DNA of 64,000 bases from Cloeon dipterum (taxonomy: Eukaryota > Arthropoda > Insecta > Ephemeroptera > Baetidae), in the NCBI RefSeq assembly GCF_949628265.1, contig NC_088787.1, positions 362,501 through 426,500 on the forward strand, given 5' to 3'. The position numbers and the translations under genes were made by a program. Of this stretch, positions 3,105 through 60,209 are shown in pieces (position 1 is the first letter of the stretch; every line of letters begins with the position of its first letter). A model generated the notes under the pieces. It made no database searches, had not been told where the DNA came from, and was given only the letters and a program-made list of their open reading frames with translations.

Positions 3105-4006
3105 AGAAAAAGGCGGGTTTGAGCCTCGATCGTGTTTTTTTATGGAACACGCATCTCCACAATAAATAAAATAAAAGAGAGAAACAATTTATATAAGTCT
3201 TTTTCGCCTTAACACCTAGTGAGCACTTTTTTCGGGTGAAAATCACACACTGCTTTGTCTCTGTCAAAGGTTGCGTTCTTTTCAGGGCGGCAGGCAGAAG
3301 TCGCGGTCGCACTGGTCCGCCGCCGCCACCGCCATGCACTGTCCAAGGGCGCAACGCCGCTGTCCGCTCGGACACGCCGTCTCCTTCCTCTCCTGCTTCG
3401 AGTCCATCCTGAGAAATTTAAGGAATTTAGCATTTCCGTTGCCGTTGGAAGCTTCTGACAGCCGGCTACAGGTGGCGCTCCGCAGCTTTAATTTTATTTA
3501 AAGCAAAGGGTTGAAGACTGTCTTTGACGAGGTTTCTGATCCCACCAATCGATTCCTGAGGGTCTAATCAGGTAAAATTTCGAATCTTTCAGTTAAAAAC
3601 GGGAAAATTTTTTTCCCGCCAAAACAATATGGACGTATTTGCGAGAACTGCGCATGCGTGAGAGCTGGCTGGATCTACCAAAGAAGTCATTCGTACAAGT
3701 GGTCTCTCTGCAAGTGCTCAAACCAGCTCTCACACATGCGCAGTTCTCGCAAAAACGTTCATTTTATTTTGGCGGGAAAAAAAGTTCGCACGTCGCGCTG
3801 GACTTTTTTAACGGAAAAATTGTTCATTCTGACTAATTCGACCCTCAGGAATCGATTGCTGGGCTGAGAATCTTCGTCAAACACGGTCTTACCAGCATTT
3901 CAGGGCAAAGGAACCTAAATCAGTCTCAAGATAAATTTTAAATCGAGTTGAGCGCCTTCTATCGGCTTCACCGACGTTCGCTCATGGCAACGAGAAATCA
4001 GAGTGC
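3105..4006. other. Intergenic region between convergent SDR and protease genes, with family B copy 2
   Basis: It contains the SDR poly(A) signal at 3161-3166, a family B element at about 3510-3890, and TTTATT at 3493-3498, which on the minus strand could serve as the protease poly(A) signal. Positions 3438-3487 reappear inverted at 9562-9600, next to another family B copy. No gene is seen. Confidence 0.6.
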
Positions 4007-17061: not shown

Positions 17062-19205
17062 ATGGACAACAAGGAGAAATTGCAGTTCGCCGAAAACAAG
17101 TTGCAGGCTTTGAAGCCCGTTGCTGTCAAGAGTTTGCAGCAGTTGGCCGCCGAGACAGTTCGACACAATGCTCCGCTTTACCTGTACAACAAAGAACGCA
17201 CCTTGCTTCTAACAAGCTTATGTAAGACGCTGAAATCACGTGAAAGTAAAAATTTATTAATTAATAATTTATTAAAATTCCAGCAAATGACGTGAAAAAT
17301 CTAGTGTTGGAGAGACTTATTAGAACTGAGTACGGCGGACCAAACGGCATTCCAAATACCGAATTCGTCGATTATTTTCAAGCGTTTTCCGATTTGCTTA
17401 ATTGGAAAACGACGGAAATGGACCTCGACGCACTGATGACATTTTGCCGCAAGAAGTTGCGCGCAAAATTCTATAAAAAGGTTTGTGTAAATTAAATTTA
17501 AAATTAAAGAACGCCTTTGATGACGTTTCTGAGCCCACTAATCGATTCCTGAGGATCGAATTAGGTAAAGAGGATGTTTTTCCATTAAAAAAGCCTAGCG
17601 AAACTTTATTTCCCACCAAAATAAACGAATGAACCAGCTGTGTATGGTTCTGACATAAAATTCGGTCTTTCTGCAAGTGCTCTAACCAGCTGTGACGCAT
17701 GCGCAACTCTTGCATTCATTTGTTTTGGCGGGAAAAAAGTTCGTACGTCGCGGTGCAATTTTTTAACGGAAAAAACATATTTTCTGACTATTTCGACCCT
17801 CAGGAATCGATTGTTTGGCTGAGGAACCTCGCAAAATTAGTCTTTCTTTAACCAACATCATTTTTTTGAGCAGGCTCTGTATCTCCTGGCAGAAAAATCA
17901 ACCCATCTGCAAACTCTGGAGATTACGAAAAACTGGAACGCGATCATCGGCGAGCAACACGTGCTTACGTCGGTTTGCAGGCTGCGCAACCTCCAGACCC
18001 TGACCGCGCCTGACCTCTACCTGGACCTGAGCGACGTGATGCACACGTGCAAGGAGCTCGAGTACCTTACGCACATTGAGCTCAAAGGAATAAACGTGTG
18101 CGGGGCGAACTACCAACACGTTGAAGAGTTTAAAAAGTGCCTGTCGCGTCTGGAGGTTTTCCTGTTCATGCCAGTAGCAGATTTGAGCGAGGGAATAGAC
18201 AAATTCAGGAGGCACTGCATCAAAAACCTGCCAAACGTGCAGATATTTGAATGCCGCGTGGAGAAGCAAGAACTTCCTCTCGGCTTCCTGGAAGAGGACG
18301 ATCTGCCCTTTGAAGCGTCTGCCCTGCAGCACTTGTACACCGTTCCCACCATGATGCCGTTGGACCAATTTTTCCCTGAAGTCAAGTCCCTCAAGGTCCT
18401 CTACTGGGTGGTGCCCGAGGAGAAAATCGACTCGCTGCTGAACTTTGGACACGTCGAGTGCCTCGAGTTGAACTGCAGCTACGACGTCGAAAACGTGGTG
18501 GACAAGTTTGTGGCGTCCTATGGGCGTGGGCTTCTTGAGTTGAACATTAGTGGCGGACCCTACAGCCTTTACCTCAATGAGATTGGTGAATCGTGTCCAC
18601 TGCTGAGGAAGCTGTCAATTGCCAATGTCATCATTGAAAATGAATGTGGCAGTAGGCCAGCAGTCTTCCCGACAATCACGGAATTCAGCTGGACAATTTC
18701 CAGGTAATTGATCAATTTACTCATTTTATATTGAGGCACTAATAACATTTTAAATTCTTTTAGCAACCAATCGAGATATTTCCTGTCTGGTCTTCTGCGT
18801 TCGTTGCCGAATTTGGAGCGGCTGACACTCAAGAAGACGCAAGTTGGGATCTTCGAGTTGGAAGACCTGCAAAAAGTGGCAGAACTCGTGGCTGAAGGGC
18901 GATTGGGGAAGCTCCTCGAGTCTTTCACGCTGAATTTCGGCGTTTATTCAGTTGAACTGCACGGACTGGCTATTGACACTTTGAGTGCGTTTACAGAACT
19001 GATCAAGAACTCGAGTGTTTTCCTGCCGAATTTCAGCACGGTGGAATTGAGCATCAATTTAGGAAGGGAATTCCTGCCGATGCTGCCTCGACGCGGCACT
19101 GTCCTCCACTACACTCCGCTTGTTCCTTTCTCCAAGGAAATTATGCTGCTTGGTGGCGACCAGAACTTTTTGCAATTTCTTTTTGCTTTCAGAAGTAAAG
19201 AATGA
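17062..19205 (+). CDS. Leucine-rich-repeat-like protein of unknown function
   Basis: Four exons give 542 aa: 17062-17221, 17284-17480, 17874-18703 and 18764-19205. An N-terminal helical region (about 1-120) is followed by irregular leucine-rich segments such as LRNLQTLTAPDLYL, VECLELNCSY, LLRKLSIANV and LPNLERLTLKKT. These resemble the non-canonical LRR arrays of insect F-box/LRR proteins. No signal peptide or membrane segment is seen and there is no clear F-box, so it is probably cytoplasmic or nuclear. An acceptor-like gtgcag just upstream suggests an untranslated first exon. Intron 2 is almost entirely a family B element. I do not recognise an orthologue, and it may belong to a lineage-specific family. 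Confidence 0.75.
17504..17851. repeat. Repeat family B copy 4 (in intron 2 of the LRR-like gene)
   Basis: It is bounded by TTAA at 17504-17507 and 17848-17851, with inverted arms tttctgagcccactaatcga and its inverse at about 17795-17825. Its end is 22 bp before the acceptor of exon 3. Confidence 0.85.
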
Positions 19206-19618: not shown

Positions 19619-20938
19619 TCCTAAAAAAATAACGTTACATGTTCAAGAGGGGGTTCTTTTTTATATTGGTTAAAATTTTGTATCAAATCGTTGACCAATG
19701 TAACGTATTTTATAATTTCAGTAACTAAAAACTTACATGCCGCGGCTTTGAAGGATTTTCCTCCAACTGCAGCTTTCAAAAGCCTGTATTTTGGCTTCCT
19801 ATTTTGATCAAACACTGTCACCCAAAGAGTTCCATTTTGGTCCAAGGCCAAAGTATACGGCCAAGAAAAATTCAGTCCAGTGACCTGAAATAATTCAAAG
19901 AACCCTTAATAATTCAACAAATATCCAATAGCTTTTGATATTATATTAAATCTATGTTTATTTAAAATTTGGTCTCATTACCTCGTGAAAACGCTGCTCC
20001 TGAAATGGCTGGGCAGTGATCCAAGAGGAAATGTAGTTTTCCCGATCAAAGGTGGCGTACATGGTCCCGTGGTTGTCAATCAGCATTTTGTATGGTTTTC
20101 CAGTCCACTTTCCGATTAGTTTAGGATTCGAAGTTCGAGTTCCGTTGCGGAGAGCGGCGACAGGAATTGAAAACAATTCTTTGGAGTCCATGTTGCCAAG
20201 GTAGAGCTGTTCCTCCTTAAGGGACAGGGCAGCGGACGATTCCTCGATTCCTGGTGTGTCCACTGTCCAAGATTCATTTCTTTCCAAACTAAAGACGACA
20301 ATGCGTTGTCCACCCGACCGCGAGATGTAGGCGAAGGTTCCGCTGGCCGTTTCGTCGATCACAAAGTCGTTTATCGGTTCGCTTGACGGAAACCGATGAA
20401 TGAGTTCGATTTCGTCGGTGTTTAAGTTGAAAATCATTAGTGTGGTATTGCAGTCGGGGCTTTCTAGGTTGAGCGCCCACAACCTTCCAACGGAGTCCAC
20501 TTGAAGCCCTTCTACGAACCGGATCTTGCTGCAGTTTCCTGTTCCCTGCAAAGAAAAAGGAATCGAGAACAATTTTACCCATTTATAAACCGAATAGTAT
20601 TTATTTTTGTTACTTACATTGAGATGCATGTCCCAGGAAGGGAACGGAGTGAGCTTCGGTGGTGCGGAGGACGCGCTGCCCGTCGGCAAAGACACCAGAG
20701 TGGCCGGGACGCCATTTTCTTTGTGCAGGCTAATGAAGAGTCTTGTTCCGTGCAGAGCTATGTAGAGAGGAAGCATATTTTCTGGTTTGAAGCTTCCATT
20801 TTCCAAGGCCTGTGTCCTTTTGGCCTCGGAGGGCCACTCGTAGTCCAATTCATCCCACTGGAAGACTTGATTGAAGTTGGCGCCGGTGGTCAGGGATGAA
20901 AGGCCGAGCAAGAAAATAGCCACCAAGAACGGAGCCAT
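19619..20938 (-). CDS. Yellow/MRJP-family protein, probably secreted (Yellow 1)
   Basis: Exons 20618-20938, 19982-20545 and 19737-19884 encode 344 aa. The stop TGA is completed by splicing to a last exon starting at 19620. Residues 1-19 are a signal peptide (MAPFLVAIFLLGLSSLTTG), followed by the family hallmarks: FQWDELDYEWPS near the N-terminus, FPSWDMH, a VDSVGRLWALNLE segment, and a WPYTLALDQNGTLWV repeat. Family members are secreted six-bladed propellers with roles in pigmentation, cuticle and other processes. Exon boundaries match those of the two paralogues to the right, but this gene lacks their membrane exon. Intron 1 is only 72 bp and stop-free. If the final donor at 19736 were unused, the frame would run to a stop at 19621. 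Confidence 0.82.
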
Positions 20939-22467: not shown

Positions 22468-24882
22468 CTAGTCCTGCAGTTTGAGATAAAGCTCTGATCC
22501 AGGAGGCGATGGATTGACTTGATCGTAAATATGTGGGTCAGAATAGGGCCTGGCAGTTCCAGGCTCGACTTGGCCAGAAGTGGAGGCGTCGTCGGGGGGA
22601 GCGACGTCGTCGTAATTATTATCATCGTCCGACTGCTCGCGTTCGACTACGTTATCAGGAGGAAAAACAGACATTTCCTGGTGGATTTCCATCTTCATCC
22701 GGTTGATAGTTTTCTTCAATCCTTTCATCCGTAAAGCCAGCCACAAGATAATGCAACATAAAATCACGATGAAAACGACCAAGCAGATCAAAGCGATGTT
22801 AAAATGGGATTCGTCGAAGGCTTCTTTCTCGGGATGCGGCTTTCCAGTCGAAATAACTTGAACGGTTGTTTGAGAGTTGTCTTTTAATACTTGGAATGGC
22901 ACAGTGCTCGAAGTTTGTTGCAATTTGGTAGGTGTAACAGTGGTTGGTTCGTATTTTTTTGGAGGGTAACTCAAGGGATTTCTTCCGCACCCTGTAAACA
23001 AAGAGAGTATTTTAAAACATTCGCCGAAAAATTACTGGCAGTACAATAATATTTTAGGGATTAAATGTTACATAGAATTTGTATGAAATTTAGCGTCTAT
23101 TCCCTTGATTTTCTGTGTGTTGGGTTTTATTAGATTATTTTGCGTGCTTTACCTTTGGGAGCAATGAGGTCGTTGTACAAATATGACTTCACGCCGACTG
23201 CCCCGCGAAGGAGCCGAAAATTTGTCGTTTTTCCTTTTTCTTTGGTCAGGATCCAAAGATTATTACACGCGTCAAAGCCGAAACTGAACTTGTAGTTAAA
23301 GTAAGTCAGTCCCTCATCCTACAACAAAGCAAAATAAGAATTATTCAAGGTGTGTTAAGTCATTGCAAATCATTCATTTTTAATTTAGAACCCTTCTCGA
23401 AAAGCAATTAATTTTTATTTTTTTGGGAAAGCATTTTTAGGAAATATAAATATCTACTATTTGTAATAACTTTGAGATAGCCAAATATAGGACTCCAAAC
23501 TTGGAATTCTATCATTTCTTAGAAAATGATTTCAGTAATTTTAAATATGTGGTCAATATTTTAGCAGAAAAAAAAGAAATAAATAAAGTCTATCAGAATA
23601 ACTAATCGCCTGCAACTGCCCATTATAATATTTTATAAAGTTTCGAATGTTTTAATGTGTATTTTAATTTTCCTAATTGGCAACTATTTATGAATATTTA
23701 ATAAAACTATGTTATTAGGTGCTCAATTGCCTAAATTTTTAAATTTTGATCAAGAAAAAATACCTTGTAAAGTTCTTCTTCCTTGAAGGGAGCAGTGGTG
23801 TCCCAAGTGCCGACGTAGTTCAAGTTATCGAGGTCAAAATATAATTTCCCTTTGTTGTCCATCAGCATTCTATAGGAAGCGGCTGTCTTTTTGCCAACCA
23901 GAGTAGGGGTCAAAAGAGAATTTCTTCCCCTCGTCCTTAATTCCGAAAGAGGAACTGAATATAGTTCTGTTTCCCAGGTAGATCCCAGGTAGACCGATTC
24001 TTTTCCCTTTATTGGCGAAAGGGCAATAGAAGTAATGTAGATGTCCTTAATTTTGATTGCCCATGAAACGTTTTCCTTCAGGCTAAATACGATCATGTTT
24101 CCCGATGTGTAGTCAGGAATGTAGGCCAAAGTGTCGTTCGGTCTCTCGTCAAGGACCAGGGAATTTAGTCCCCTCTTTTCATAATTGTATCTGACGGTAT
24201 CATTGGTGAATTGATGCACGAGGATGACTGAATCGTTTTCCGTTAGATCAAAAATCCAGAGCTTTGCTGGACAAATCTCATTTCCTCTATCAACGGCCCA
24301 AAGGCGACCACAAACGTCAACAACCATTCCCCTGATTTGCTGCATAGTCGCGCAGTTTCCTGTTTCCTATAAAAATTAAAGAAAAAATCTAGTTCAATAA
24401 TACATCACGGATGGCCGAAAAATTAATTCTCAAAAGGCAAGAAATTTTTAATTTAATCTCTTAACCGTTGCTATTTTTATCAGTCTTCCACACTTTTAAA
24501 AGATGAAAAAACCAACCTCAAATAATCAATATACAAAATAATATTGGTTTTGGTTGAGTGATTTTCTTACGTGCATTCTCCACGAATGAAATGGATTCAG
24601 TTTCGGAGATTTTGAAGACGCAGTGGTTGGAAGCCAGGTTAGGGTAAACGGAGTTGGGTAATCTGCCGATTTATAAATGCTGATGAACACTCTCTCCCCG
24701 TAAACGACATGGTCATATGGTACAACTTTTGTTTTATTATAGTCTCCCTTTCTCTCAGCTTCTTTTCGAAAATCTTCTGAAGGCCACACAAAGTCGAAAT
24801 TTTCCCACTCGAAAACGGCGGTGAAGTTGATGGAGGCCGCGGACTGGCCGAACAGCAAAGTCAAAAGGAGGATCAAACTCAT
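22468..24882 (-). CDS. Membrane-anchored Yellow/MRJP-family protein (Yellow 2)
   Basis: Exons 24571-24882, 23764-24366, 23153-23318 and 22468-22991 join to 534 aa. A signal peptide (about 1-17) precedes the Yellow/MRJP propeller (about 18-360), with hallmarks FEWENFDFVWPS, HSWRMH, VDVCGRLWAVD, DYTSGNMIVFSL and ACNNLWIL. The last exon adds a Cys-containing linker, a Thr/Gln-rich stalk (about 375-415), one strongly hydrophobic helix (about 426-447, ALICLVVFIVILCCIILWLA), basic residues, and an 87-residue tail. The tail is acidic and holds YDDV (Y487), YDQV (Y516) and YLKL (Y529). Topology is inferred as type I, with the propeller outside and the tail in the cytosol. Yellow proteins are normally secreted, so the anchored form is unusual. 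It forms a tandem pair with Yellow 3. Ligand and partners are unknown. Confidence 0.87.
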
Positions 24883-24885
24883 CGT

Positions 24886-25612
24886 TCAAGAACTGCAGGT
24901 CAAAAAGAGAATTGAAAAATATGGAATCATTGCACGATAAATCGTAAGCACAGTAACAGAATTCGATTAAACTTTTAATAAGTGCAATAAATAAAAATTG
25001 CATTTAAAAATACTTGTTCACACTTCGGTGGTAGACGAGGTCGAAAGGAACCGAACAAGGAAAGGGTTCAGCGTCATCGGACGAAGGGAAAAGGGAGGCT
25101 ACGCCCCCTCGAAGAGGACGGAACGGCCGATCTTCGACAACATTAGACCGGAGGGTTTGTAAGGGCCGTCGAAGACCATTTCGGGATTCGAGGAACCCGG
25201 CGAAGGTCTCCGGGCACAAGGTGTTGCCCCGCAATTGTTCTGAATCGTGATTCGGATTCCGGCGGAGGATTTTGAGGGGCCAGATGGGCCTGCATTAAAG
25301 TTCCCATAGACGGATTTGAGTTAACTCGAGGGCTGCAGTCGCTGTAGAGACCGCGCAGGGACCAGTAGGCCTAGCGTTTCCTCAAGGACCGGAGGGGACG
25401 CAGTTGCCGTGAATTTTTGAAGGGCCGGAGGCACGAGACGACTGACGTCTCGCAGTCCTCCTCTTTGACCGCGCGGAAAGCAAAACTGGCTGGCGGTGGG
25501 AGTCGGAGGTGACCGCGGGCGGAAGGGAGTATAATCGTAATCGATATAAACTAGAAAGGACGAAAACTAACCTTTGGTTGGCTGCGCAGAGATGAAGCCT
25601 TGCCACGTCCAT
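24886..25612 (-). promoter_or_regulatory. 5' UTR exon and upstream ORF of Yellow 2
   Basis: A non-coding first exon ends at 25572 with a GTTAGT donor; the next exon begins at 24892. The ATG at 25612-25610 opens a 15-codon frame (MDVARLHLCAANQSS) that crosses the splice junction and stops at TGA 24888-24886, three bases before the main ATG. Yellow 3 has the same arrangement with a similar peptide. Confidence 0.7.
25018..25540. other. GC-rich insertion in the Yellow 2 5' intron
   Basis: About 520 bp of G/A-rich sequence interrupts an AT-rich intron and is absent from the equivalent Yellow 3 intron. It carries several degenerate copies of a gggccggagg / gaccggaggg motif. I do not recognise it. 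It may be a mobile-element fragment. Confidence 0.5.
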
Positions 25613-25652
25613 AACTTGGATCGAGGAAATGATTGACAAGCCCAAAGCTTTT

Positions 25653-25660
25653 TCTCTATA
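25653..25660 (-). promoter_or_regulatory. Probable TATA-like element of Yellow 2
   Basis: TATAGAGA on the minus strand lies about 45 bp upstream of the upstream ORF. The same alignment column in Yellow 3 reads TTTAAAAG (31955-31962). Confidence 0.45.
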
Positions 25661-28167
25661 AGCAGTTCAGCACAAGGAAGTTTTGGTTAAATGCTGGGAG
25701 AACCAATAATAGCAGCCGGATCTGAGTGGCGTGCGCGATAAAGAGAAATAATCTAAAACACGTGACGCAATTTCTATACACTCTGGAGAAAAAATTATTT
25801 AGTTCGGCAACACAGGAAATTCCAAAACAGAAATGGTTTTCTCTGACTAATTAAAATATACATGCGACTGATTTGAGTGAAATAAATGAACCGTGTATCA
25901 GCGAATCAAATAATCACGATTAATTGTTAGGGAGAGAGCTGAATTCACTTTCATTTGGAACAAAATTATTGATTTAATTCGGTCAGTTGACCTCTTTTGA
26001 GATAGGAGACCCCTAATAGCGAAAAGCTCGCTTACTAATAACTTCCAAATGGACTCAAGAGAGCCTCATTGTTGGAAGCCCAGTCGGGAAAAGGACCAGC
26101 ACGAGATTTACAACCCCCACGCCAAGGTCTTTTATTGAAATGTCCTCTACAATTAGTCCAGACATTCTGGAAAGGTGCAAAACTGAAGTAGCGAGTCGAA
26201 ATTCCCACAAATCCGAAAGGAATCGTCAATGCAATATGCAACAGAGGCAAACACATGTTCGATTCAGCCAGCAATCAACCCCCAAACATTCCTTCGCATA
26301 CGCTTGCTTAGTTATTTTATTAAATTTAGTTCTAAAATTTGCTGAATTTATAACAATTCATATAGAAATCGTGATTAATAAAGAATATCTTATTATACCT
26401 GTTTGCACAATGGAACAATTAGACTTTGTATTTTGAGTAGATACATTTATTTGTCTCGTTGCAAGAATTATTAAATTTACTCTGTTAAATAACGCTAAAT
26501 CACCTTGAAAAAAATGAATTTATTAAAAAATTAGTTTTCTGTCGAAAAAAGCGCACTTCCTTTCAGGCCATATGAATTTTAATCTAATTTCCTGTTGGAC
26601 TCAGATTAGAGTCAAAACCAGATGTAAAGCATGCGTGTGTATGTGTGTGGTTGTGATTTAGAAAATAAATTTTAAAAAATCCTTTTTTTTCATGGTACCA
26701 GAAATTTATAGAAAATATGATATATATAAAAGACCATCAAATTAGGTATTTTCTAGATGTTTTTTTAAAATAGCAACCTGCGCATCGAGCCTATTTCTTT
26801 TGTTGTGCCACTTTTCCATGTTTTCTCTGTGGAATTGTCGATGTCGTGGCCGTCAACGCCTCCGAACTGCTGTTGGTCTCCGCCGAACCGCGCCTCCGGC
26901 TCAAAAACTGCCCTGAAATGTCCGTCGAGGCGAACCTGTATGAATAAAACTCCATTTTGCCGAGCGGAAACTCCCGGTGGCTGGCCTGGGGGTGCGGCGG
27001 CAGGGTGAAGATAGAGACTCTCAGCGGCCGCTCGTGACGGCACAACGAGTTTCTGCGAACGAAAGGAACACCTGCCTCTCCATCTTTTGTACGTAGACGA
27101 GCGGCCAGAACGAATTCAGTTTCGTGTCGATGAGGCAGGCGCGAGGATTTATTTTTGTGCAACCCCCAAAGAGTTCTGCGAGTGTCATATTCATCGCTCC
27201 GAATTTTATCAAATGTCCCGGTTTTTTTCCTTTTCCAATTTAAGTTGGTTCAACATTTTTTACGCCCTAAGCACCAGCTTTTTTAAATAATTTCGTTCCT
27301 TTAGTCGCGCGATACTTTAAAAAGGGGTAAGTGTGTTTCTGAATTTGCAAATAAGAGAGGAATTCGTCGCACTCATGATTATAAATTTTTATGATGGACC
27401 CTGAACGATCAAAAATACATTTTTGGAACGCAACAAGACCATTTTATGTAAGCAACGCAATTGGCTCAACGTGTGTGCTGCGCAGGTTGCCTAAAACCGG
27501 ATTTATGCTCGCATGAATATGAAAATAATTTTTGTTTCTCTCCCGGAAATGCTTCTTGCTGTTTAATTATCACTATTCAAACCGGAGAAGGAATGAAAAT
27601 GTCACACCTCGAAAGTTTTTCTCGGGGAATTAAAAACCATCGGTGCATCAGAGGCCGTCGGCCAAAACTCAAAATGGGCTACACATTAACTCTGTTTCTC
27701 TTTGTGAGCGTCAAGAAAATAGCACGTGCGCACGGAAGGAACGAATTCAGGCTGGCCCAAAAAATTCTCTTGACTGCCACACACCGGTAGTTTAAGGTCA
27801 TCTCTGAGCTTTACAGGCTTATTATTTTTACCAAAACAATGCGAATGCCTTTATTTTGCGGATTAGTGACCTCTTCCTGCAACAACCTTGAGTTTCTTTG
27901 TTTATAAACACAATTTAAAAGAATTGCTCGCGCGTAAACACTTTGCAATGTGTATGGTCGAAATTGCTGAAAACATTTTTAATCTCTAACTAAAATCTAT
28001 TATCGAGTTTGCGTCTGCAATCGCTTTCGGGGTCACAGCAGAGCTTTGCGTGGAATCAGGGCTGGCAGGTGCTCTCCCAGGGTTGGTCGCAGGTGCCGTG
28101 GACGCAGCCACGATCAAACCGTGTGTAACTTTGTGACGTCGACAGTTGGAAAAGATGGGCTGTAGGC

Positions 28168-28235
28168 ATGACTCCGCCGTTTTCGTGCGCCATTTTCTTG
28201 CTCGCTGACCTTTCATTCGTGCGAATCCTGCGGCC
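28168..28235 (+). pseudogene. Remnant of a Yellow-type signal-peptide exon
   Basis: On the plus strand MTPPFSCAIFLLADLSF resembles the Yellow 1 start MAPFLVAIFLLGLSSL. The 40 bp before the ATG resemble those before a second remnant at 32927. The frame then loses similarity and no further exon is found. Confidence 0.45.
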
Positions 28236-28284
28236 CCCGGCACTACAATACGATTCTCGACATGGTCATCATTAGTCATTAGTG

Positions 28285-28600
28285 GAGCTCAGAAATGTGG
28301 TTTTCGGCCAGGTCGACGTGCTTCAGGGCAGTCAGGTGTCAGGTTGTCGAACGCTCCAGCTTCGCTCGTTCTTCAGGCTCAGGTTGATGAGATGTCCGAC
28401 CTGCTGAAACCCTGTCCAGGGTGCTGTCACTGACGCTGAGCACCTCCACCTCTGAACTCGGGTTTAGTATTGAAAAGGGCCGAAGCAGGTGACGTCCTTG
28501 TGGTGCCAGCAATCTTCTTAGTAGACGCAGCCCGGCGGACACTCGGACGTCCGGTCGGAGCTGACCGTCCAGCAGCCTGATCTTATTTTTCCAAGGAACA
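28285..28600 (-). pseudogene. Decayed leucine-rich-repeat gene fragment
   Basis: On the minus strand a cysteine-flanked SECPPGCVY segment, like an LRR N-terminal cap, is followed by in-frame stops. Then GAFDNLT in one frame and LTALKHVDLAENHISELH in another form a typical extracellular LRR, broken by a frameshift and ending in a stop. No intact gene model is possible. Confidence 0.45.
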
Positions 28601-29398
28601 TCTTTTCAGGGCGTCACATTATGATTCGTGAACGAGGAAGCATTTTTTTTTTTAATTTTTAGATAGCTCTATAATAATTATTATTTTAGCTGCTGACATT
28701 GAGAATTAAATTTTGTGGTCGGAAGACAGCACCACACTTCATTTTTTTTAACATGTGTGTTGCTCTATATTTTTTGAGTAAAGTATTCACTTAAAAATTG
28801 CAGTAAAGGAATTTAATTTTTTTTATTAAAAATATTTTGATTCAAACGCGGCGCGATCTTCTTGTGGCTTTGGACTCATTTATAAATTACGTTATTGGTT
28901 TTTTTTATAGAAAATCGGGATATATGATGTTGATTTTGTTCTTTTAACAGCTCGCTTTCATTCAGTTAATCAAAGAGCCAACTGTTCAAGCTGCCAAACT
29001 ATCAGTAATTCCGATATTTGAATGAAAAAACTGCTTAGCTTCACTTGCATTATAAAAAGGATGGGATGTTTTTCTCTGTCTTACTCTTGAAAGTTTCGTA
29101 AAAACTTTATAAAACCTTTTAGAGTGTAAAAGCTGCTAAAAATTTATTCGAGGAAAAATGATATTAAATTTAACATTACGCCACTCACAATCAGTTTTGA
29201 TGATAAAAATTTTAGATAAACTCTAAAAATTAAAAAGCAATTTCAGCTAAAGTTTTTGTTCAATTTTTATTGTTTGGCTCAACACACTATAAACTTTAAA
29301 TTGTTAGTTTTGATGCGCAAAATTATTCTGAATAAATTGATAATAACACTGTATAAATATGTATGCAATTATATAGTGGAATATATATAACAAATAAG

Positions 29399-31618
29399 CT
29401 AGTGATGAGGCTCGTCCTGGAGTCTGAGATAAAGCTCTGAGCCTGGAGGCGATGGAAGGACTTGATCGTAAATATGTGGGTGAGAATAAGGTCTGGCGCT
29501 TCGGAGCTCGACTTGGACTGATGTCGAGGCGTCGGGGGGAGCGACGTCGTCGTAATTATTATCATCGTCCGACTGCTCGCGGTGGACTACGTTATCAGGA
29601 GGAAAAACGGACATTTCCTGGAGTTCATTTCTCGTCCGGGCGGCGGTTTTCTTCAACCTTTTCACCCATAGAGCCAGCCACAAAATAATGCAACATGAAA
29701 TCATGCAGGAAACGGCCAAGCAGACCAAATATGCGATATTGAAGTCGTTTTTTTCGATGGAATCTTCGTATTTTTTTGTAGGGTAATTTGAGGAAACTCT
29801 TCCGCACCCTGTACAAACAGAAAACATTTTTATAAAGATACGTTGAAAATCTAACTGGCAGTTCAATAATTGGCAGGAATTTAAAGGATTAAATTGTCTA
29901 AGAAATGAAGTGTCTTCCCTGGATTTTATCATCTCTAGTGCCCGCTTTGTGATGGTATTTATTGGTGAATTAAGAGAAGTGCATTACCTTTGGGAGCAAT
30001 GAGGTCGTTGTACAAGTACGTCTTCGCTCCGACTGCCCCGCGAAGGAGCCGAAAATTTGTATCTTTATTTTGTTCTCTGGTCAGTATCCAAAGATTATTA
30101 CACGTGTCAAAGGCGAAACTGAACGGAAAGCTATAAGTAGTCAGTCGCTCATCCTACAACAAATAAGGAAAATACGAACTATTTAAAGTGCATAATAATT
30201 GGAAAATAATACATTTTTAATGGAGGAACATTGCTCTATAGCAAACATTTTTTATTCTTTTTGTTTCATTGAAAAAATATTCTACCAGCAAAAATAAAAA
30301 AATTCCCGTCAATCAGTCCAAAAATTCGTCTAAAACTTTATTATGATAGGAAATTTTAAATATTTTCGATATGAATCTTCAATTTCATTTGACCACTATG
30401 TGAATATTTATTAAAAGCTAAGTTGTCTGTAATATTATACTTTTCACCAAGAAAAATACCTTGTAGAATTGTTCTTCCTTGAAGGGAGCAGTGGTGTCCC
30501 AAGTGCCGACGTACTTCAAGCCTCTGAGGTCAAAATATAATTTCCCTTTGTTGTCCATCAGCATTCTTAAGGAGCCGGCTGTCTTTTTGCCAACCAAAAG
30601 AGAATTTCTTGGGGTCAAAAGAGTATTTTTTCCCCTCGTCCTTAATTCCGAAAGGGGAACTGAATATAGTTCAGATTTATCCCGATGTCCCAGGTAGGCC
30701 AATTCTTTTCCCTTTATTGGCGAAAGGGCAACAGAATCAATGCTGATGTCCTTAATTTGGATAGCCCATGAAACATTCTCCTTGAGGCTAAATACGATCA
30801 TGTTTCCCGATAGATAGTCAGGAATGTAGGCCAAAGTGTCGTTCGGTCTCTCGTCAAGGACCACGGATTTCAGATCCCTTTTGCTATAAGTGTGCGACGC
30901 AATTTCATTGGTGAATTCATGGACCAGGATGACCGAATCGTTTTCCGTTAGGTCAAAAATCCAGAGCTTCGCTGGACAAATCTCATTTCCGGTATCAACG
31001 GCCCAAAGGCGACCACAAACGTCAACCACCATGCCCCTGATTCCCTGCATAGCATCGCAGTTTCCTTTTTCCTATAAAAAAATACGGAACTATTTTAAAA
31101 AAATGTATCCCTTCACAGATGTTAAAAAATTACTCTCAAAAGGCATTACGACATTTTTCATTCAATATCATAACCTTTTTTTATTTTTTGACCAGTCTTC
31201 CTCAAAATTAACAGGAAAATACCAAACATGATCCAAAAAAATGATTGTTTTAAATTAAAATTAATGACATTGAATTTGGATTATGTAAATTCACTGATTT
31301 TCTTACGTGCATTCTCCACGAAGGATATGGATTCAGTTTCGGAGACCCTGAAGACGCAGAGAGTGGCAACCAGGTTAGGGTAAACGGAGTTGGGCTGTCT
31401 GCCGCTTTATAAATGCTGATGAACACTCTCTCCCCATAAATTACAAGCTCATCTAGGAAAATTTTGGTAGGGACATAGTCTCCCTTCCTCTCAGCTTCTT
31501 TTCGAAAATCTTCTGAAGGCCACACAAAGTCGATATTTTCCCACTCGAAAACGGCGGTGAAGTTGACGGAGGCCGCGGACAGACCGAACAGAAAAGCCGG
31601 AAGAAGGAACCAACTCAT
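29399..31618 (-). CDS. Membrane-anchored Yellow/MRJP-family protein (Yellow 3)
   Basis: Exons 31307-31618, 30460-31071, 29988-30153 and 29399-29808 join to 499 aa. It is a close tandem paralogue of Yellow 2 with identical intron positions and phases. Signal peptide, MRJP propeller (about 18-363), then a much shorter linker than Yellow 2 (the Thr/Gln-rich stalk is missing), a membrane helix at about 388-412 and an 87-residue tail. The tail is highly conserved with Yellow 2 and keeps all three tyrosine motifs: YDDV (Y449), YDQV (Y477) and YLRL (Y490). It adds EPHH at the end. Exon 2 has a three-codon insertion with a repeated NSLL-type segment relative to Yellow 2. Function is unknown. Conservation of the tail against the changed stalk argues that the tail matters. 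Confidence 0.87.
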
Positions 31619-37195: not shown

Positions 37196-37868
37196 CAATT
37201 AATTTCTTACAAAAAAAAAGGTTTTAAATTGGAGGGAATTATCAAAATAAAATAATTCAAGTTTAAAACACATCTCACCAACTGAAATTTTATAAATTTA
37301 GCGTAAATAATAAAATTTTAACTGTGTTTCGGTAGTAAACAACTTATTGTAGCCATCACGTTTCTGAGTTTTATCGTACCGGTTTAAAACGGCATGGCTA
37401 AAACCGGTTTTTAACCAGTTTTAACCGGGTTTGATTAATTTAAACCCGGTTTTAACCAGTTTAATCCAGCCCGCTGGGTTTTTCGAAAAAAATGGTTTTT
37501 TCTGAACCGTGTATAGCCAATTCAATCCATTTTTTTTAAATTTTTTAATAATCCGAAAAATGTAGAGTTGCGATTTTTTATTACGTTGAAATATACAATA
37601 AAATTTATATGTCACAAAAATTCCTCACTTTAAAAAAACCCATTTATGCCCGGCCAAAAATTGCGAGCAAATTAAATGAGAACAAAGTGCTGGGAGTGAG
37701 GAAAAGAAGCGTCTTGTCTTTGGATGAGGATCTGCACGCGGCGTGAATGGGCTCGGGGGTGGGGGCCGGGGGCGGCAGGTGGCGGTCTCCCCTCCTCGGC
37801 GTGCGTGCCGGCCGGCCGGCCGGCGTCTCTTCTCGCTCTGCGGCTCGAAATTCAGTTTCAAAGCGGCG
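37196..37868. other. Intergenic region upstream of bib
   Basis: It contains the CAP-gene poly(A) signal, a cluster of accggtttaaa / aaaaccggttttt / ttaaccgggttt motifs (37376-37465), an AT-rich stretch and a GC-rich segment (37730-37868) that is probably the bib 5' UTR. No TATA box is clear. Confidence 0.55.
37376..37465. promoter_or_regulatory. Cluster of AACCGGTT-like motifs
   Basis: At least five imperfect copies of AACCGGTT/AACCAGTT spaced 13-20 bp apart. The motif resembles the Grainyhead site, but the array may simply be a degenerate tandem repeat. Confidence 0.4.
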
Positions 37869-40800
37869 ATGGAGGAGAACGGGCGCGCGGTGGAGCTGCT
37901 GCAGGAGGCGCTGCAGACGCTGCAGAACGAGGCCAACGCGGCCGGCGGCGCCGCGGGGCCCCGCGGCCACAACGGCGTGGCGTCGACGCGCGCCGAACTG
38001 CGCTCGCTGCACTTGTGGCGCGCCATCATCGCCGAGTGCGTCGGCGCCTTCCTCTTCGTGCTGCTCGTGTGCGGCGCCGCCGCCCACCACGCCGACGCCA
38101 CGGCCCTCGCCATCGGCGCCGCCGCCGCCGCACTCGTCCTCTGCTTCGACGCCGTCTCCGGTAATTAATTTTTTTATTTTTTTAAAAAAATTAAAAAATT
38201 GAAAAAAAAATTCTTAGAATTTATGAAAAAAAATCTACTATAATTTATTTAAACTCTTCAAACCCAGTTGTTACTAGTTTAACCTCCGGTAATTAATTTA
38301 TGTAATTTATAAAAAATAAATAAACTGTTTTTTTAATTTTCTTTGAGTTTATTTTATTTTAATTCAATTTAATTTGTAAATTTCCGAGCCGTAATTTTGC
38401 TCCGTTGGCATTCGGTTGGACGCGTTTAGAAATGACGTCTTTGTTTGTTTATTTTTTGCGGCTGCGCTGGCTCTCATTGGATTTTTTTTTGTCCGACATC
38501 CTCTGCGATTGAGGGCCGGAAGTGGCTGCTGCTTGCTGCTCTCTATTTGTTTCTCAAGCCCCCGGCCACCGATTGTGTTGCAGGCGCACACCTGAGCCCG
38601 GCGGTGACCTTCGCCCTGGCAGCAACCAGAAACATTTCGCCCATCAGGGCCGTCATGTTCATCGCCGCGCAGTGCGGCGGCGGAATCGCCGGCGCCGCCC
38701 TCCTCTACGGGTCAGTCTTATTTAATTTAAAATAATTAATTTTGTGTCGCGCCGTCGCGTCACAACAATTCATCTCGTCAAATTGTGGCCAATTAATTCC
38801 GAGAGCGACGCCTCGTTTTTTTTTATTTTTTAAATTTATTCCCACGAGAATCCCTGACGCATTCTTCCCTGCCAAAAGCGAGCAGATCGGCCCTTTTGTG
38901 TTTCAATCTGCCGTCTCTCGAGGCTTCAAAACCTTTTTCTGTTCCTATCGGGGAAATAAATCTGGAGTTTTATTTGCGGCCGGCGGCTACAAACGGTTTC
39001 CCGCCGGCAGATGCTGCGCCGAGCATCCCTTTCTTATATTCTTGCCGCGTTCATCCCCTAATTTTAATATTTTCCATCCGAAATTTCGCGAATCGAAGCA
39101 CCTGCGAGCGGCAAGTGCGGTTTTTCCCTCGGGATCGCACGCAGGGGTGATTTTCGGCTTTGTTTCTCGCTCCCCTGGCGCGACAGATTGTCTCAATGAC
39201 GCACAATAGGGGCCAATTACGCTACCCCTTTGTCCGCGTCCGCCGCCCCTCGCAGCCTGTTGCTCCCATTCAACACTTTGCGCCGATTCCAAAGCCAAAT
39301 GTTTCATCCACTGCGATCCAGTTTTAACAATGTTGCGGTTGATTCTTCATTTTTTATTGAATAATCCAAATTAATTGCTTCAAGGGGAGAAAAGTTACGA
39401 AATTTTCTTTCGAGTCTTGAAAGTACTTTTAAAAATATTTGAGCAATGATAAATTATTGTTGGGCAACCAGGGATAAAAAAACACCAGCTTTGACAGCTA
39501 AAAGAAATTCGTTTATCTTGAAATGTGAAAAGGACCCTCTCTGTATGATGTCCAGATCCAGATTGTGCTTTCTTTAAAAAGACTATTACCAGCAAAGGCC
39601 GATTCGGCACGCACATGTGTGTGTGAGCTTCGGAAACAGCGGGAAAGTGCGTGCCGCGCCCCCCTTTGATGGTTATTGCCAGTTTTCTGCGAAATTTCCA
39701 GCGTTAGGCCATGTTTTTTCACACGATATGGATCCTCTCGTTGAGATCTATCTGCCAGTGTGACTTTTTCTTTGGGAAAATGCGAAAATTGAGTTAAAAT
39801 CGCCATTGAAAATTTATTTTTGAACTGTACATGTGTCTTATTTGTCTGAAAATTTCAACTGACCGTTAGACAACCTTTTTAAAGAGAAATTCCCTTTTTG
39901 GACAGATCGCTGTTTAAAATAACCAATTTAATGTACCAAAAATATCCGAGTTTGTGGATTTGAAGGACCAGATGCCGCGCGTTTCTCCCTTTTTGCTCTG
40001 CGCCCGTGTGTCTTTCTTTTCTCGCAAGAGTGGATGCGCCGCTAAGGAGGGAAGAATTTTTATCCCGAACATGTGCTCATCGGCGGGACAGGGACAAAGG
40101 GAAAATTTGAGATGCGGATGCTCAGGGCAGCTGCACCTTCCTCCCCCGAGGAGCAGCCCCAATTAAGAGGCGGCAGCACGTCCCTTGGAAAGCGGCTGCA
40201 CGTGCCGGCGCATCACCTTGCCTCGCAGGAAGTCTCAAAATCTTTGACATTTTATTTTTAAATCACTCCCGAGATAAAATAAATTCATTCGAAGCGAGTT
40301 GAATTGGCGAATTGGTCTCGTTGCTCCTTCGTAATTGGGGTTAAAACACACGCAGAGGCTCGGCTCGGGAGGAATATATTGTTTCTAATGCACGTGCTGC
40401 CCGCCCGACGGACCGGAGAAGAGGCAGGCTGTTGCATCTGCCTGCCGTTTTTTTACTTTGGGTCGGGGGAGCAGAGCAGAGCAGAGAGGGGAAGAGAAGA
40501 GCAACAGCTGTCGGTTGCTTGGCCTCCCTCGCGCCGCAGTTGCCAGCTCGCGCGCGCACGCTAAATAACATTCCAGCCCGCAGCGAATTCGCTGCTTCTT
40601 CTTTTTAAATTCATGACAGGAGATGAGAATTAGAAGGGTCGAGAGAGCGAAAGGGAGCCAGCCAGCGCTCCTCGTTTTCATTCGATTGTCCAAATCGCGC
40701 AGGGAAGAAAAAAAATAAATGACAGCTGGCTAGCAGCAGACAAGAATCGAATCTGCCGTTTTAGTAAAGATTATTTAAGTAAGTGAATTTCCCCGCGAAA

Positions 40801-43635
40801 TTCTTAGGTCCTAAGGATCACGTTGAGTTAAAATAAAAATAAATTTCGAGAGAATCGGCCTCAAAGTGGAAAATAATAAACTGTTGGGTCGTGTTGTTTA
40901 AAAATCAACAGCGCACTGTTTAAAGAAACAGCGTCTTGTCAAAAGGTCGAGCACTAAACTTTTGTTATTCTTACTGAAGCAAACACACGTGCGTGCCGAA
41001 TTGGCCTTTGCTGGTCATATAGTCTTTTTAAAGAAAGCACAATTGGAGCTGGACGTCATTACAGAGAGGGTCGCCTTTTCACGTTTCAAAATAAATGAAT
41101 TTCTTTTAGCTGTCAAATCTGGTGTTTTTTTTTACATCCCTGGTCGCCCAAGGATAATTGATCATCGCACGAGCACTGAGTTTCATTTATTATTGGTTTT
41201 CCTTTGAGTTTACTGCTCTATTGATAGCAAAATTATTGTTTTAAATGGAGAATTCTCAAGTGCAATCGCGATTTTCACTGACTTTCCGCATTTCTCCAAA
41301 GAAAAAGTCACTCTGGCAGATAGATCTTGATCAGAGGATTCCAAATCATGTGAAAAAACATGGCCGAGCGCTGGAAATTCCGGAGAACACAGGCAAAAAC
41401 CAACATAAGGGGGCTTGGCACGCACTTTCCCGCCGTTGATTCTCGCAAACTAGATAAAGCAGCAAGAATTCTCTGCCAGAAAATTCCTCGTCGCTGATTG
41501 GCTGAAATAAAAGCTCGCTAGTAGTTCCCGCGCGGTTGCCTAGCAACGCGTTGTCAGCCAATCAGCGTCGAGGATTCTTCCAGCAGAGAATTCTTGCTGA
41601 TTTTTCCGATCTTCGGGTTTTCATTTGCAATTAAACCATTTTAAATGTGTTTCTGCGAGTTGAAAGAGTTAATTTATAGATTTACAAACGCAGAAATCCA
41701 TCAAAAGTCAATTTAAAACTCGAAAATCGAGGAAAGCAGCAAGAATTCTTTGCTCAGAGAATTCTCGACGTTGATTGGCTAGCGCTGAACGCACGTCAAC
41801 AGCTTCGATGTTTTACTGAATTGCGCGGGAGAATCTGACATGCGCGTTGTTAGCATATCAGCGTCGAGGATTCTTCCAGCAGAGAATTCTTCCTGATTTG
41901 AGTGTTTTCATTGGGCATGAAACCGTTTTAAATGTGTTTCTGCGATTATACATCAGTAAAAAGAGTTGATTTATATCGATTAATAACTCAGAAATCCACT
42001 TAAAGTCGATTTAAACCAACTCAAGAGTACCATTTTTTATCTTCTCACTATTTATTCTTCATAATTTTCTCAATTTATTTCATTTGCTGAAAAAGAGGGC
42101 GTAAAAACAACCGGTAAAATTAAAAAAAAAATTGATTTTTTGGCACTTTTGGGTTCGTTAGGCTTTACTTTCCATGTAATAAATTTTTTGTATAAAAAAC
42201 CCCGATTATTCCCGTTTAAAATTGAGAAGCCACCTGCAAGTGGACCTGAATGGCGACAAACACCCTTTGTTTGTTGCATCACTCACAATCAGTGTCTCGG
42301 TCTAGTGAACGGAGCGCTGCAGAGAATAACAAATAACCCGGCGCTCGTGTGTGTTTTCAGGATGAGCGCGAGCCCCGGCATGCTGCAGCTGGCGGTGCTG
42401 CCAGGTGCCACCTCCGCCGCGCCCTGGCAGCTGTTCACGCAGGAGGTCGTGCTCACCTTCCTCGTCGCCCTCTGCTACTTCGTCTCCAGCGGCGCCGCCA
42501 AGGCGCCCGCCGTCGGCGCCGCCTACCTCGCCGCCACCCTCACAGCAACGGTAATTTTATTTTTTTGTTAAAATCCTTTAAAAATTTGATTTTTTTTAAA
42601 GGACCAGTCAACTCATCCGCCATTTTGAATTTTTTTAAGTCTAATCATTTTTAAATTCCTTCAGCAGGCACCTGCGTTGAACCCTGCGAGGGCGCTGGGC
42701 CCGTCGTTCGTGCTGCACAGGTGGGAGGCCCACTGGGTCTTCTGGGTGGGGCCGCTGCTGGGCGCCCTGCTCGCCGGAGCCCTCTACGAATTCATCCTGA
42801 ACCCTAGCAAGTTCAGCCAACGCAACAAAGGCTCGAGCTACGCAGGTGAGACCGGTCCCAAACTCGACCTGACCCTGACTAAACCCCGAGTTTTCTGTCC
42901 TAGACTCGTCTAGCGTGCGTAGCGACCCTGACAACTATGAGGACCTGGACAAGGGCTGCGCCTACAACAGCCTCAGGAATCGACAGCCCATCAGCCCCAT
43001 TTCACCAGGTAAATTTTCCCTCCTGCCACGCCCCTTAAACGAAAACGACTCTTTTCCCGCCAAAAGTTCAAAATGTCGCCACTGTTATGAAAATTCTTGA
43101 GGTCTATTTCGAGAATTCTCACATGAAAAATGGCGCCGTAGGCCAACCACGCCCCTTCCTCTTCACACATTTTCCCGCCAAATATTTAAAACCACCGAAT
43201 TTATTTTCAGGCTTGGCGAGCGCGAGCAACTACTGCCTGAACATCAAGAGCGCGGCGGCGGCGAACGCGGAGCCGATCTACTCGCCGCGCTCCATGTACA
43301 GCAAGTCGCCGGCGCTGACCAGGGCGAACCTGAACCGCAGCCAGTCGGTGTACGCCAAGTCTCCGCCGGGGCCGCCGCCGGGGATGGGCGTGCCCGGCAG
43401 GGCGCCACTGTCGCCCGCGCAGTCGCTTTACCCTGGCATGGTGTGCCGCACGTTCAACGTGCCACGCCCCTCGCACACGAGCGTCTACCAGCTCAGGTCG
43501 CAGCCGCACGAGCCCATCTACGGCCAGCGGCAGCCGTCCGCCAGCCCCGAGTCCTCCTCCTACGGCTCCTACAAGCTGCCCGCCAAGCCCCCAAGGGACT
43601 TTTCCTCCCTCAACTCGCCCGCTGTCAATTACTGA
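37869..43635 (+). CDS. bib: Big brain, aquaporin-family neurogenic channel
   Basis: Six exons: 37869-38160, 38584-38710, 42361-42550, 42665-42845, 42904-43008 and 43211-43635, giving 439 aa (438 if the alternative acceptor at 42668 is used). The six-helix MIP channel spans about 45-245. SISPIRA-like NISPIRAVMFIAAQCGGGIAGAALLYG-type sequence, split here for length, and the second NPA (209-211, LNPARALGPSFVL) match insect Bib. The first NPA box reads S-P-A (102-104). The long cytoplasmic tail contains SPALTRANLNRSQSVYAKS, a conserved Bib segment, plus other Tyr/Pro-rich repeats. In Drosophila, Bib promotes Notch signalling in lateral inhibition and acts in endosome function. Intron 2 is about 3.65 kb. 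A likely poly(A) signal is at 44546-44551. Confidence 0.93.
39380..39810. repeat. Repeat family G copy 1 (bib intron)
   Basis: Segments around gctttgacagctaaaagaaa, gtgctttctttaaaaagact and ggccatgttttttcacacga recur in inverted orientation at 40945-41440. Confidence 0.75.
40945..41440. repeat. Repeat family G copy 2, inverted
   Basis: It contains agtctttttaaagaaagcac, atttcttttagctgtcaaat and tgtgaaaaaacatggccgag, the inverses of copy 1. The two copies are about 1.1 kb apart in the same intron and could pair in the transcript. Confidence 0.75.
41445..41605. repeat. Repeat family D copy 2
   Basis: Palindromic element with gcagcaagaattctctgcca and inverse cagcagagaattcttgctga at the ends. 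Inside are gtcgctgattggctg and its inverse. Confidence 0.8.
41725..41905. repeat. Repeat family D copy 3
   Basis: Same ends and core as copy 2; about 120 bp of separating DNA also looks shared. Confidence 0.8.
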
Positions 43636-47101: not shown

Positions 47102-47664
47102 GCCTCTGTTTGCTGCGTCCTGTCTGTCTGACACCGACACCGACAACGCCTTCCTTCGCCACTGCGCCTCGAATACACTCTGCGCGCGCTGATTGGCTCG
47201 TCTGCCGCGCTCGACCAATCACAGCCCGGCGCGCTCTTCTCGAGAATTTTACGAGAATTTCAGAAATTTTTCATAATTCTTAGGATTCTTGGGATTGGTT
47301 TCGCTTGATTTTAATTAAATGCTTGCTAGAATTAGAATCTTATGAACTTTTCTTAACGTCAGAGTTTTAGTTTTTCAAATTTACGCCGTGTTTTGTGGAA
47401 AGTACGAAAAAAGTGGTGTGCACTAAGGAGTTGACACTTCAAACTCAAATCTTTGCCTTTTTCGCATTAAAATGATAAAAAAACCTCAACATAAACACTA
47501 AATATAAATATTTGGCATTAAAAATATTTAAATTTATTGAATAAAATTGATTTAAAGTTGAAATCTGAGTTATACGTTTTGCCTTCCGTCTGTACACCCC
47601 AGTCACCACCTGGTCAATTGTAAACAAACGCACGCGGCCGTCGTGTTTGTCTCCGTCCGTGCTC
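47102..47664. promoter_or_regulatory. Shared intergenic promoter region of TMX1 and DHX33
   Basis: 563 bp separate the two divergent start codons. Near TMX1 there are two oppositely oriented CCAAT boxes (gattggct at 47190-47197 and ccaatcac at 47214-47221) within GC-rich DNA. No TATA box is evident. Positions 47300-47560 are AT-rich. Confidence 0.6.
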
Positions 47665-51415
<3,751 letters not shown>

Positions 51416-60190: not shown

Positions 60191-60209
60191 TAAATCTTGT
60201 TCCTCAGGA

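What the first reader, a model, noticed from the sequence alone, without database searches (positions are those of the whole stretch)
22468..31618. Two Yellow/MRJP proteins with a transmembrane helix and a tyrosine-motif cytoplasmic tail
Seen: the last exon of two tandem Yellow genes encodes one hydrophobic helix of about 22-25 residues followed by basic residues and an 87-residue tail. The tail keeps YDDV, IYDQV and LYL(K/R)L in both copies, while the stalk between propeller and membrane differs strongly. The last two tyrosines are 13 residues apart (YxxV-x9-YxxL), just outside the classical ITAM spacing of 10-12. Known: Yellow/MRJP family members are described as secreted proteins. Inference: these may be cell-surface receptors or scavengers that signal through SH2 proteins, or that are internalised through AP-2 by the YxxPhi motifs.
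Basis: partly seen in the sequence, partly recalled or inferred. Interest (0 to 1): 0.88.

Follow-up and report, generated by a model that had tools for sequence, protein, structure and literature searches.

The report
Yellow proteins turned into membrane receptors
In a mayfly, proteins of the Yellow/royal-jelly family, usually secreted, appear to have become a very large family of cell-surface molecules, many with tails full of tyrosine signalling motifs and others with the tail cut short.

Summary
Both genes have clean four-exon models: signal peptide, MRJP propeller, stalk, one transmembrane helix, 87-residue tail. The source is taken to be the mayfly Cloeon dipterum. Capped searches find at least 284 Yellow exon-2 loci, 258 on one chromosome, and 123 places like the helix/tail exon; 95 of 123 lie within 4 kb 3' of a same-strand Yellow exon, against 1 on the opposite strand.

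Strict ITAMs are absent (0 of 32 long tails). The signature is YDxV: 73 occurrences against a shuffle mean of 1.0, the Nck-SH2 motif of nephrin. Of 68 tail exons read, 35 are long and 33 short, some of the short ones broken long tails. A-B dN/dS is 0.40 in the tail, 0.54-0.78 in propeller exons.

Best reading: type I membrane Yellow receptors whose long forms dock SH2 adaptors (Nck/Dock first guess) on clustering, with short forms as silent or decoy members. Ligand, kinase, partner, expression and presence in other mayflies are unknown. No RNA reads were available; 12 of 22 Cloeon database proteins join propeller to helix.

The parts
24571..24882 (-). Gene A exon 1: start codon, signal peptide, start of propeller
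23764..24366 (-). Gene A exon 2: propeller
23153..23318 (-). Gene A exon 3: end of propeller, phase-1 donor
22468..22991 (-). Gene A exon 4: stalk, helix, tail, stop codon
22732..22797 (-). Gene A transmembrane helix, residues 426-447
22603..22614 (-). Gene A YDDV
22516..22527 (-). Gene A YDQV
22477..22488 (-). Gene A YLKL
31307..31618 (-). Gene B exon 1: start codon, signal peptide, start of propeller
30460..31071 (-). Gene B exon 2: propeller
29988..30153 (-). Gene B exon 3: end of propeller, phase-1 donor
29399..29808 (-). Gene B exon 4: short stalk, helix, tail, stop codon
29663..29737 (-). Gene B transmembrane helix, residues 388-412
29543..29554 (-). Gene B YDDV
29459..29470 (-). Gene B YDQV
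29420..29431 (-). Gene B YLRL

Best explanation
Genes A and B belong to a family of type I membrane proteins greatly expanded in this mayfly: signal peptide, Yellow/MRJP beta-propeller outside, variable stalk, one transmembrane helix, and a disordered tail with Y[DE]xV motifs (YDDV, YDEV, YDQV, YEEV) and often a terminal YLxL or YLKI. Proposed mechanism: the propeller binds an extracellular ligand; clustering lets a Src-family-type kinase phosphorylate the tail; several phospho-YDxV sites recruit SH2 adaptors, first guess Nck/Dock, which drive actin assembly and dynamin-dependent uptake as for nephrin. Short-tailed paralogues share stalk and helix, stop before the tyrosines, and would be silent or decoy forms. 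Shown: gene models, hydrophobic helix, family size as a lower bound, motif excess, long and short forms. Inferred: topology, phosphorylation, kinase, partner, ligand, decoy role.
For: Clean models; Pfam MRJP; AlphaFold of the relative P0001: propeller, disordered stalk and tail, one long helix, best PDB matches are Yellow/MRJP proteins. 28 of 28 places with Yellow exons upstream of the tail; 95 of 123 tail places linked, 1 of 123 on the opposite strand. 12 of 22 Cloeon database proteins carry propeller then helix. YDxV 73 against shuffle mean 1.0, maximum 4; Y[DE]xV in 26 of 61 tail tyrosines and 1 of 209 ectodomain tyrosines, sequons 65 in 4853 ectodomain residues and 5 in 1294 tail residues. 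Tail dN/dS 0.40. 17 type-2 exons with 27-33-residue tails and no YxxPhi. Nephrin YDxV and Nck: passages of PMC12203975 and PMC4238058.
Against: No transcript reads and no experiment. 5 of 22 Cloeon database proteins have no helix, one of them (P0004) joining a tail directly to the propeller, so soluble or cytoplasmic-looking products may exist or be annotation errors. Shuffles and the Fisher test ignore relatedness. Y-motif columns are only slightly more conserved than other tail columns (0.69 to 0.61, 0.92 to 0.83, 0.80 to 0.79). Type-3 tails hold an unexplained conserved non-tyrosine block. YxxPhi (131 against 35) and ITIM-like (25 against 6.2) patterns are in excess too. No Nck/Dock gene was sought.
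Confidence: 0.65

Rival explanations
1. Scavenger or sorting receptors: the YxxPhi motifs bind adaptor-complex mu subunits, so the proteins take up a ligand without phosphotyrosine signalling.
For: YxxPhi 131 in 32 long tails against a shuffle mean of 35; sand-fly salivary Yellow proteins bind bioamines as scavengers (abstract start of PMC5094789).
Against: The excess lies in acidic Y[DE]xV (90 against 2.5), and tails carry several such sites where one sorting signal would do (recalled).
Confidence: 0.17
2. Paired-receptor type of regulation: long tails act through ITIM-like or loose ITAM-like pairs by SHP- or Syk-type SH2 proteins, and short tails oppose them.
For: Long and short forms with shared stalk and helix, interspersed on a small tree with 7 changes of state; ITIM-like 25 against 6.2, loose ITAM-like in 24 of 32.
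Against: Strict ITAM 0 of 32; none of the 16 short exons has a charged residue in the helix for an adaptor (the exons were not counted).
Confidence: 0.08
3. Membrane-tethered Yellow proteins with a structural or enzymatic role (cuticle, eggshell, melanin); the tail only anchors or sorts.
For: Relatives have such roles (abstract start of PMC13147567); short-tailed members exist.
Against: Tail dN/dS 0.40 for A-B and the YDxV excess argue that the tail has a task of its own.
Confidence: 0.08
4. Artefact: exon 4 belongs to a separate gene and is not spliced to the Yellow exons.
For: One tail-like exon (L102) has its own ATG and no Yellow gene was found in 12 kb.
Against: 28 of 28 places with Yellow exons upstream in order; matching phase-1 junction in A and B; joined models in 12 of 22 Cloeon database proteins.
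Confidence: 0.02

Closest known systems
Yellow/MRJP family (PF03022): Aedes dopachrome conversion enzyme 9w1k, MRJP1 5yyl/7asd, Lutzomyia salivary protein 3q6k
   Same: Ectodomain: Pfam match and the eight best PDB fold matches; N-terminal signal peptide.
   Different: The typical Yellow protein is one MRJP domain with a signal peptide, taken as extracellular (passage of PMC6678240); here a stalk, helix and tyrosine tail follow, and the copy number is far higher.
Nephrin and other YDxV/Nck receptors
   Same: Several YDxV motifs in a cytoplasmic tail; nephrin has three, which bind Nck multivalently when phosphorylated (passages of PMC12203975).
   Different: Ectodomain is an MRJP propeller, not Ig domains; phosphorylation and Nck binding untested here; no sequence homology of tails was tested.
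Vertebrate paired receptors (KIR, LILR, CD300, CEACAM)
   Same: Clustered, expanded family with long-tailed and short-tailed members sharing the membrane region (listing only).
   Different: Propeller, not Ig; YDxV rather than strict ITIM/ITAM; no charged helix residue in the 16 short exons counted.

Membership tests
Yellow/MRJP (PF03022) | MRJP domain above the curated cut-off | tested here: met
   80.9 and 78.5 bits against 19.8
Yellow/MRJP (PF03022) | Beta-propeller fold | tested here: met
   Tested on relative P0001, not on A or B: model, best PDB matches 9w1k, 5yyl, 7asd, 3q6k
Yellow/MRJP (PF03022) | Single-domain secreted protein (typical, not obligatory) | tested here: not met
   Helix and tail in the last exon; membership rests on the domain, so it stays a member of the domain family
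ITAM receptor | YxxL/I-x6-12-YxxL/I | tested here: not met
   0 of 32 long tails; with V allowed 24 of 32
ITIM receptor | [SIVL]xYxx[LIV] | tested here: inconclusive
   25 matches in 19 of 32 tails against a shuffle mean of 6.2
YDxV/Nck-type receptor (works like) | Several YDxV motifs in a cytoplasmic tail | tested here: met
   73 YDxV in 31 of 32 long tails; two each in A and B
YDxV/Nck-type receptor (works like) | Phosphorylation and Nck SH2 binding | not testable with these tools
   Needs a pulldown
Paired receptors (works like) | Long- and short-tailed members sharing the membrane region | tested here: met
   17 type-2 exons with 27-33-residue tails beside long type-2 tails; mixed groups on the tree
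Paired receptors (works like) | Charged helix residue in short forms for an adaptor | tested here: not met
   0 of 16 short exons; exons not counted

The most novel reading that the evidence does not exclude
An early-branching winged insect has built a germline-encoded recognition repertoire of hundreds of Yellow propellers, with soluble, short-tailed (decoy) and long-tailed (signalling) members, for immune, self/mate or chemical recognition: an invertebrate counterpart of paired-receptor systems on an MRJP fold, wired through multivalent YDxV-Nck clustering, perhaps with a stand-alone LAT-like tail protein (L102).
Probability: 0.2. Interest if true: 0.95.

Novelty: new variant of a known kind. 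Interest (0 to 1): 0.83.

Why it matters
Yellow/MRJP proteins have been studied as secreted proteins, and how they act on cells is largely open (recalled). A branch with its own transmembrane tail gives a direct handle: the tail can be assayed for phosphorylation and partners, and the propeller used to seek the ligand. A family of this size with long and short tails would be an unexpected large receptor repertoire in an early-branching winged insect; the main text of the 2020 genome paper PMC7250882 holds none of the terms yellow, royal jelly or MRJP.

Tried and rejected
Strict ITAM reading: rejected (0 of 32). Separate-gene artefact: rejected for A and B, open for L102. An extra intron in A's stalk, suggested when B's protein was aligned to A, was taken as an artefact of stalk length. 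The place C2:590905-594536 pairs a type-3-like propeller with a type-1 tail 2 kb away: chimera or remnant, not resolved.

Tails without a Yellow gene: of 123 tail places 28 had no listed exon 2 within 4 kb. One of these (C2:2973936) does have Yellow exons in its model. Ten more were opened: L103 is a Yellow gene; L098 has a partial Yellow upstream; L104 has a listed exon 2 about 5 kb upstream, not modelled; L099, L100, L101 and L105 gave only tail fragments; L102 has no Yellow in 12 kb; L106 and L107 were fetched with too little upstream to judge. The other 17 were not opened upstream.

Counts: 284 is a lower bound, since each stopped at 150 matches and one search scored 113 of 734 candidates; it merges 150, 150 and 111 exon-2-like matches and four loci known from models, includes possible pseudogenes, and leaves out Yellow loci found only by the Pfam search. 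The 68 exons read are not a random sample: and part were chosen because only the helix region had matched, which favours short tails. Dropped before counting: L096 (no helix) and 352850 (same place as 352675). At least 4 of the 33 short ones (352675, 1664887, L084, L086) show remains of a long tail after the stop or in another frame, so they are broken long tails. Six of the 35 long ones run off the fetched DNA. The same-strand control (Yellow exon on the 3' side of the tail) gave 50 of 123, as tandem arrays would.

Other species: tail searches gave 4 and 7 hits, all Cloeon dipterum; whether other mayfly proteomes are in that database was not established. Not done: binding-pocket or site-selection analysis. 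PMC9631960, PMC11597413 and PMC11491810 were searched for terms and held nothing of use.
Full report
What was checked. The window lies at C2:362501-426500 of G000, 190 Mb in 10 contigs. C2 is 37,456,129 bases long, the length of the contig that carries database proteins named 'protein yellow-like [Cloeon dipterum]', so I take the source to be the mayfly Cloeon dipterum. Both genes read cleanly: four exons, introns GT-AG, phases 0, 0 and 1 in both, 534 and 499 residues, no in-frame stop. Pfam MRJP scores 80.9 and 78.5 bits against a cut-off of 19.8. The last exon encodes a stalk, a hydrophobic helix (residues 426-447 in A, 388-412 in B), net charge +5 in the next 15 residues, and an 87-residue tail. 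YDDV, YDQV and YL(K/R)L stand at matching places; the last two tyrosines are 13 apart in both.

Selection. Between A and B, Nei-Gojobori dN/dS is 0.76, 0.54 and 0.78 in exons 1, 2 and 3, 1.81 in the stalk (16 changes only), 0.34 in the helix (12 changes) and 0.40 in the tail (36 changes). The tail is thus at least as constrained as the propeller. Among paralogous long tails the median ratio is 0.63, 0.46 and 0.50 in the three tail types, over 17, 28 and 88 pairs with dS between 0.1 and 1.

A family, not two genes. A search of the genome with B's last exon gave 30 matches, all on C2. Exon-2 matches of three subfamilies, merged, give at least 284 distinct loci: 258 on C2, 14 on C1, 9 on C5, 2 on C3, 1 on C4. 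each stopped at 150, so this is a lower bound; possible pseudogenes are included. Tail searches (207 matches) merge to 123 places. Of these, 95 lie under 4 kb 3' of a same-strand exon 2 (median 809 bp); 1 of 123 does so on the opposite strand; 50 of 123 have a same-strand exon 2 on their 3' side, as tandem arrays would give. Of 28 places whose DNA I held, 28 have at least two Yellow exons upstream in order on the same strand; one of them (594171) pairs different subtypes.

Is the last exon joined to the propeller? I have no RNA reads. Of the 22 Cloeon proteins returned by three searches, 12 carry a propeller followed by a helix in one protein: ten 'Hypothetical predicted protein' entries on shorter contigs (P0001, P0002, P0005, P0010, P0016, P0018, P0020, P0021, P0023, P0024) and two on the 37,456,129-base contig (P0003, P0014). 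I infer, from names and contig lengths, that these are two annotation efforts; what evidence they used I did not see. Three more (P0015, P0017, P0022) have part of a propeller before the helix (P0015 and P0022 by eye). Against: P0004 joins a tail to the propeller with no helix, P0007, P0008, P0009 and P0011 have no helix, P0006 has its helix before the propeller, and P0019 lacks the propeller; P0003 uses a different exon 3 end from my model. A retained intron 3 in A or B would end the protein within a few residues, so soluble forms are possible.

Structure. AlphaFold on P0001 with a 10-row alignment has mean pLDDT 71.7. Ten-residue blocks of the propeller run from 61 to 93, most above 80; residues 368-431 (stalk) and 475-519 (tail) are under 50; 434-480 is one helix. 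The eight best PDB matches are Aedes dopachrome conversion enzyme 9w1k, MRJP1 5yyl and 7asd, and the sand-fly salivary protein 3q6k. A and B themselves were not folded.

What the tails say. Of 48 tail exons, 32 are long (70 residues or more), with 6.0 tyrosines on average. Observed and shuffle mean: YDxV 73 and 1.0 (maximum 4 in 300 shuffles; 31 of 32 tails); Y[DE]xV 90 and 2.5; YxxPhi 131 and 35; YxxP 28 and 24; YxN 7 and 9; strict ITAM 0 and 0.3; ITAM-like with V allowed 36 and 1.0 (24 of 32 tails); ITIM-like 25 and 6.2. Shuffles ignore relatedness. As a within-protein control, in 12 proteins Y[DE]xV takes 26 of 61 tail tyrosines and 1 of 209 ectodomain tyrosines (Fisher 2.4e-18, again ignoring relatedness); N-glycosylation sequons number 65 in 4853 ectodomain residues and 5 in 1294 tail residues. 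Y-motif columns are only slightly more conserved than other tail columns, and type-3 tails also hold a strongly conserved non-tyrosine block around SPRSARRVKAMPERPRTFEKFG, unexplained.

Long and short forms. Of 68 tail exons, 35 are long (33 with at least one Y[DE]xV, 28 with two or more; six run off the fetched DNA) and 33 short (3 with Y[DE]xV, 24 with no YxxPhi, 14 with no tyrosine). At least four of the short ones are broken long tails. The clean group is 17 type-2 exons with tails of 27-33 residues that end around where long forms read EMSVFP, before the first YDDV. On a tree of 25 type-2 stalk-plus-helix rows the state changes 7 times and two well-supported groups hold both kinds, but only 4 of 21 inner branches are well supported. 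The sample was partly chosen for short matches, so no ratio can be drawn from it.

Mechanism. YDxV is described as the SH2-binding motif of nephrin's group B tyrosines, with affinity for Nck adaptors when phosphorylated; three motifs bind Nck multivalently and recruit actin regulators and dynamin (passages of PMC12203975). Nephrin, Nck and N-WASP form clusters on membranes that assemble actin (abstract and passages of PMC4238058). By analogy the long-tailed Yellow proteins would be clustering-driven receptors and the short forms silent competitors. That is inference: kinase, partner, ligand and tissue are unknown, and no Nck/Dock gene was sought.

Known or new. A typical Yellow protein is one MRJP domain with a signal peptide, taken as extracellular (passage of PMC6678240). 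Searches (69 papers, 30 titles seen; 13 listed; 0; 6; 0; 0; 2) of the open-licence library showed no paper on membrane-anchored Yellow proteins or on this expansion; subscription papers, preprints and supplements were not searched. The genome paper PMC7250882 has no occurrence of yellow, royal jelly or MRJP in its main text (term search). Tail searches hit only Cloeon dipterum.

Verdict. I rate it a new variant of a known kind: MRJP ectodomain and a known type of phosphotyrosine tail, in a new combination and at a new scale.

Noticed in passing
L102 (G000 C2:4098177-4098809, - strand): A tail-like exon with its own ATG (short ectodomain, helix, tail with YDDV, YEEI, YDYV, YDDV and QYLKVLP) and no Yellow gene found in 12 kb: perhaps a stand-alone LAT-like protein, tail donor or relic.
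   Followed up: partly
window 19750-20938 (-): A third Yellow gene (exons 20618-20938, 19982-20545, 19750-19884 or a little further) with no helix seen by eye; splicing at the usual phase-1 donor would give a stop at once, so probably a soluble form.
   Followed up: partly
G000 C1 about 18954000-18990000; C4:26817814; C3:18399564; C1:1187102: Other Yellow/MRJP loci found by the Pfam search, with stronger scores than the tailed family and probably the conserved insect Yellow genes.
   Followed up: no
type-3 tails, e.g. L042 and L057: Strongly conserved non-tyrosine block around SPRSARRVKAMPERPRTFEKFG in the middle of the tail, with no known role.
   Followed up: no
P0006 (database protein): Before its propeller it carries a helix and a tail of another kind with YLPM, YVEM, YAEI and YEEL; by eye a fusion with an upstream gene, perhaps a further tail type.
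   Followed up: no
P0012, Danaus plexippus Yellow: Ends in a hydrophobic stretch after a Ser/Asn-rich linker, by eye like a GPI-anchor signal: membrane attachment of Yellow by another route may exist elsewhere.
   Followed up: no
window 2180-2476 (-), 3568-3867 (+), 9155-9550 (+), 17398-17715 (-), 53868-54149 (-): A dispersed repeat whose frames read LPNS(T/I)LRNRLVGSETSSK or close to it; also in L102.
   Followed up: no
window 60102-60933 (+), 61908-62498 (-), 47562-50972 (+), 37728-42913 (+), 4007-4833 (-), 17841-19205 (+): By eye from translations: C-type lectin-like, collagen IV end, DEAH-helicase-like, aquaporin-like, trypsin-like and leucine-rich/F-box-like genes; ordinary neighbours.
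   Followed up: no
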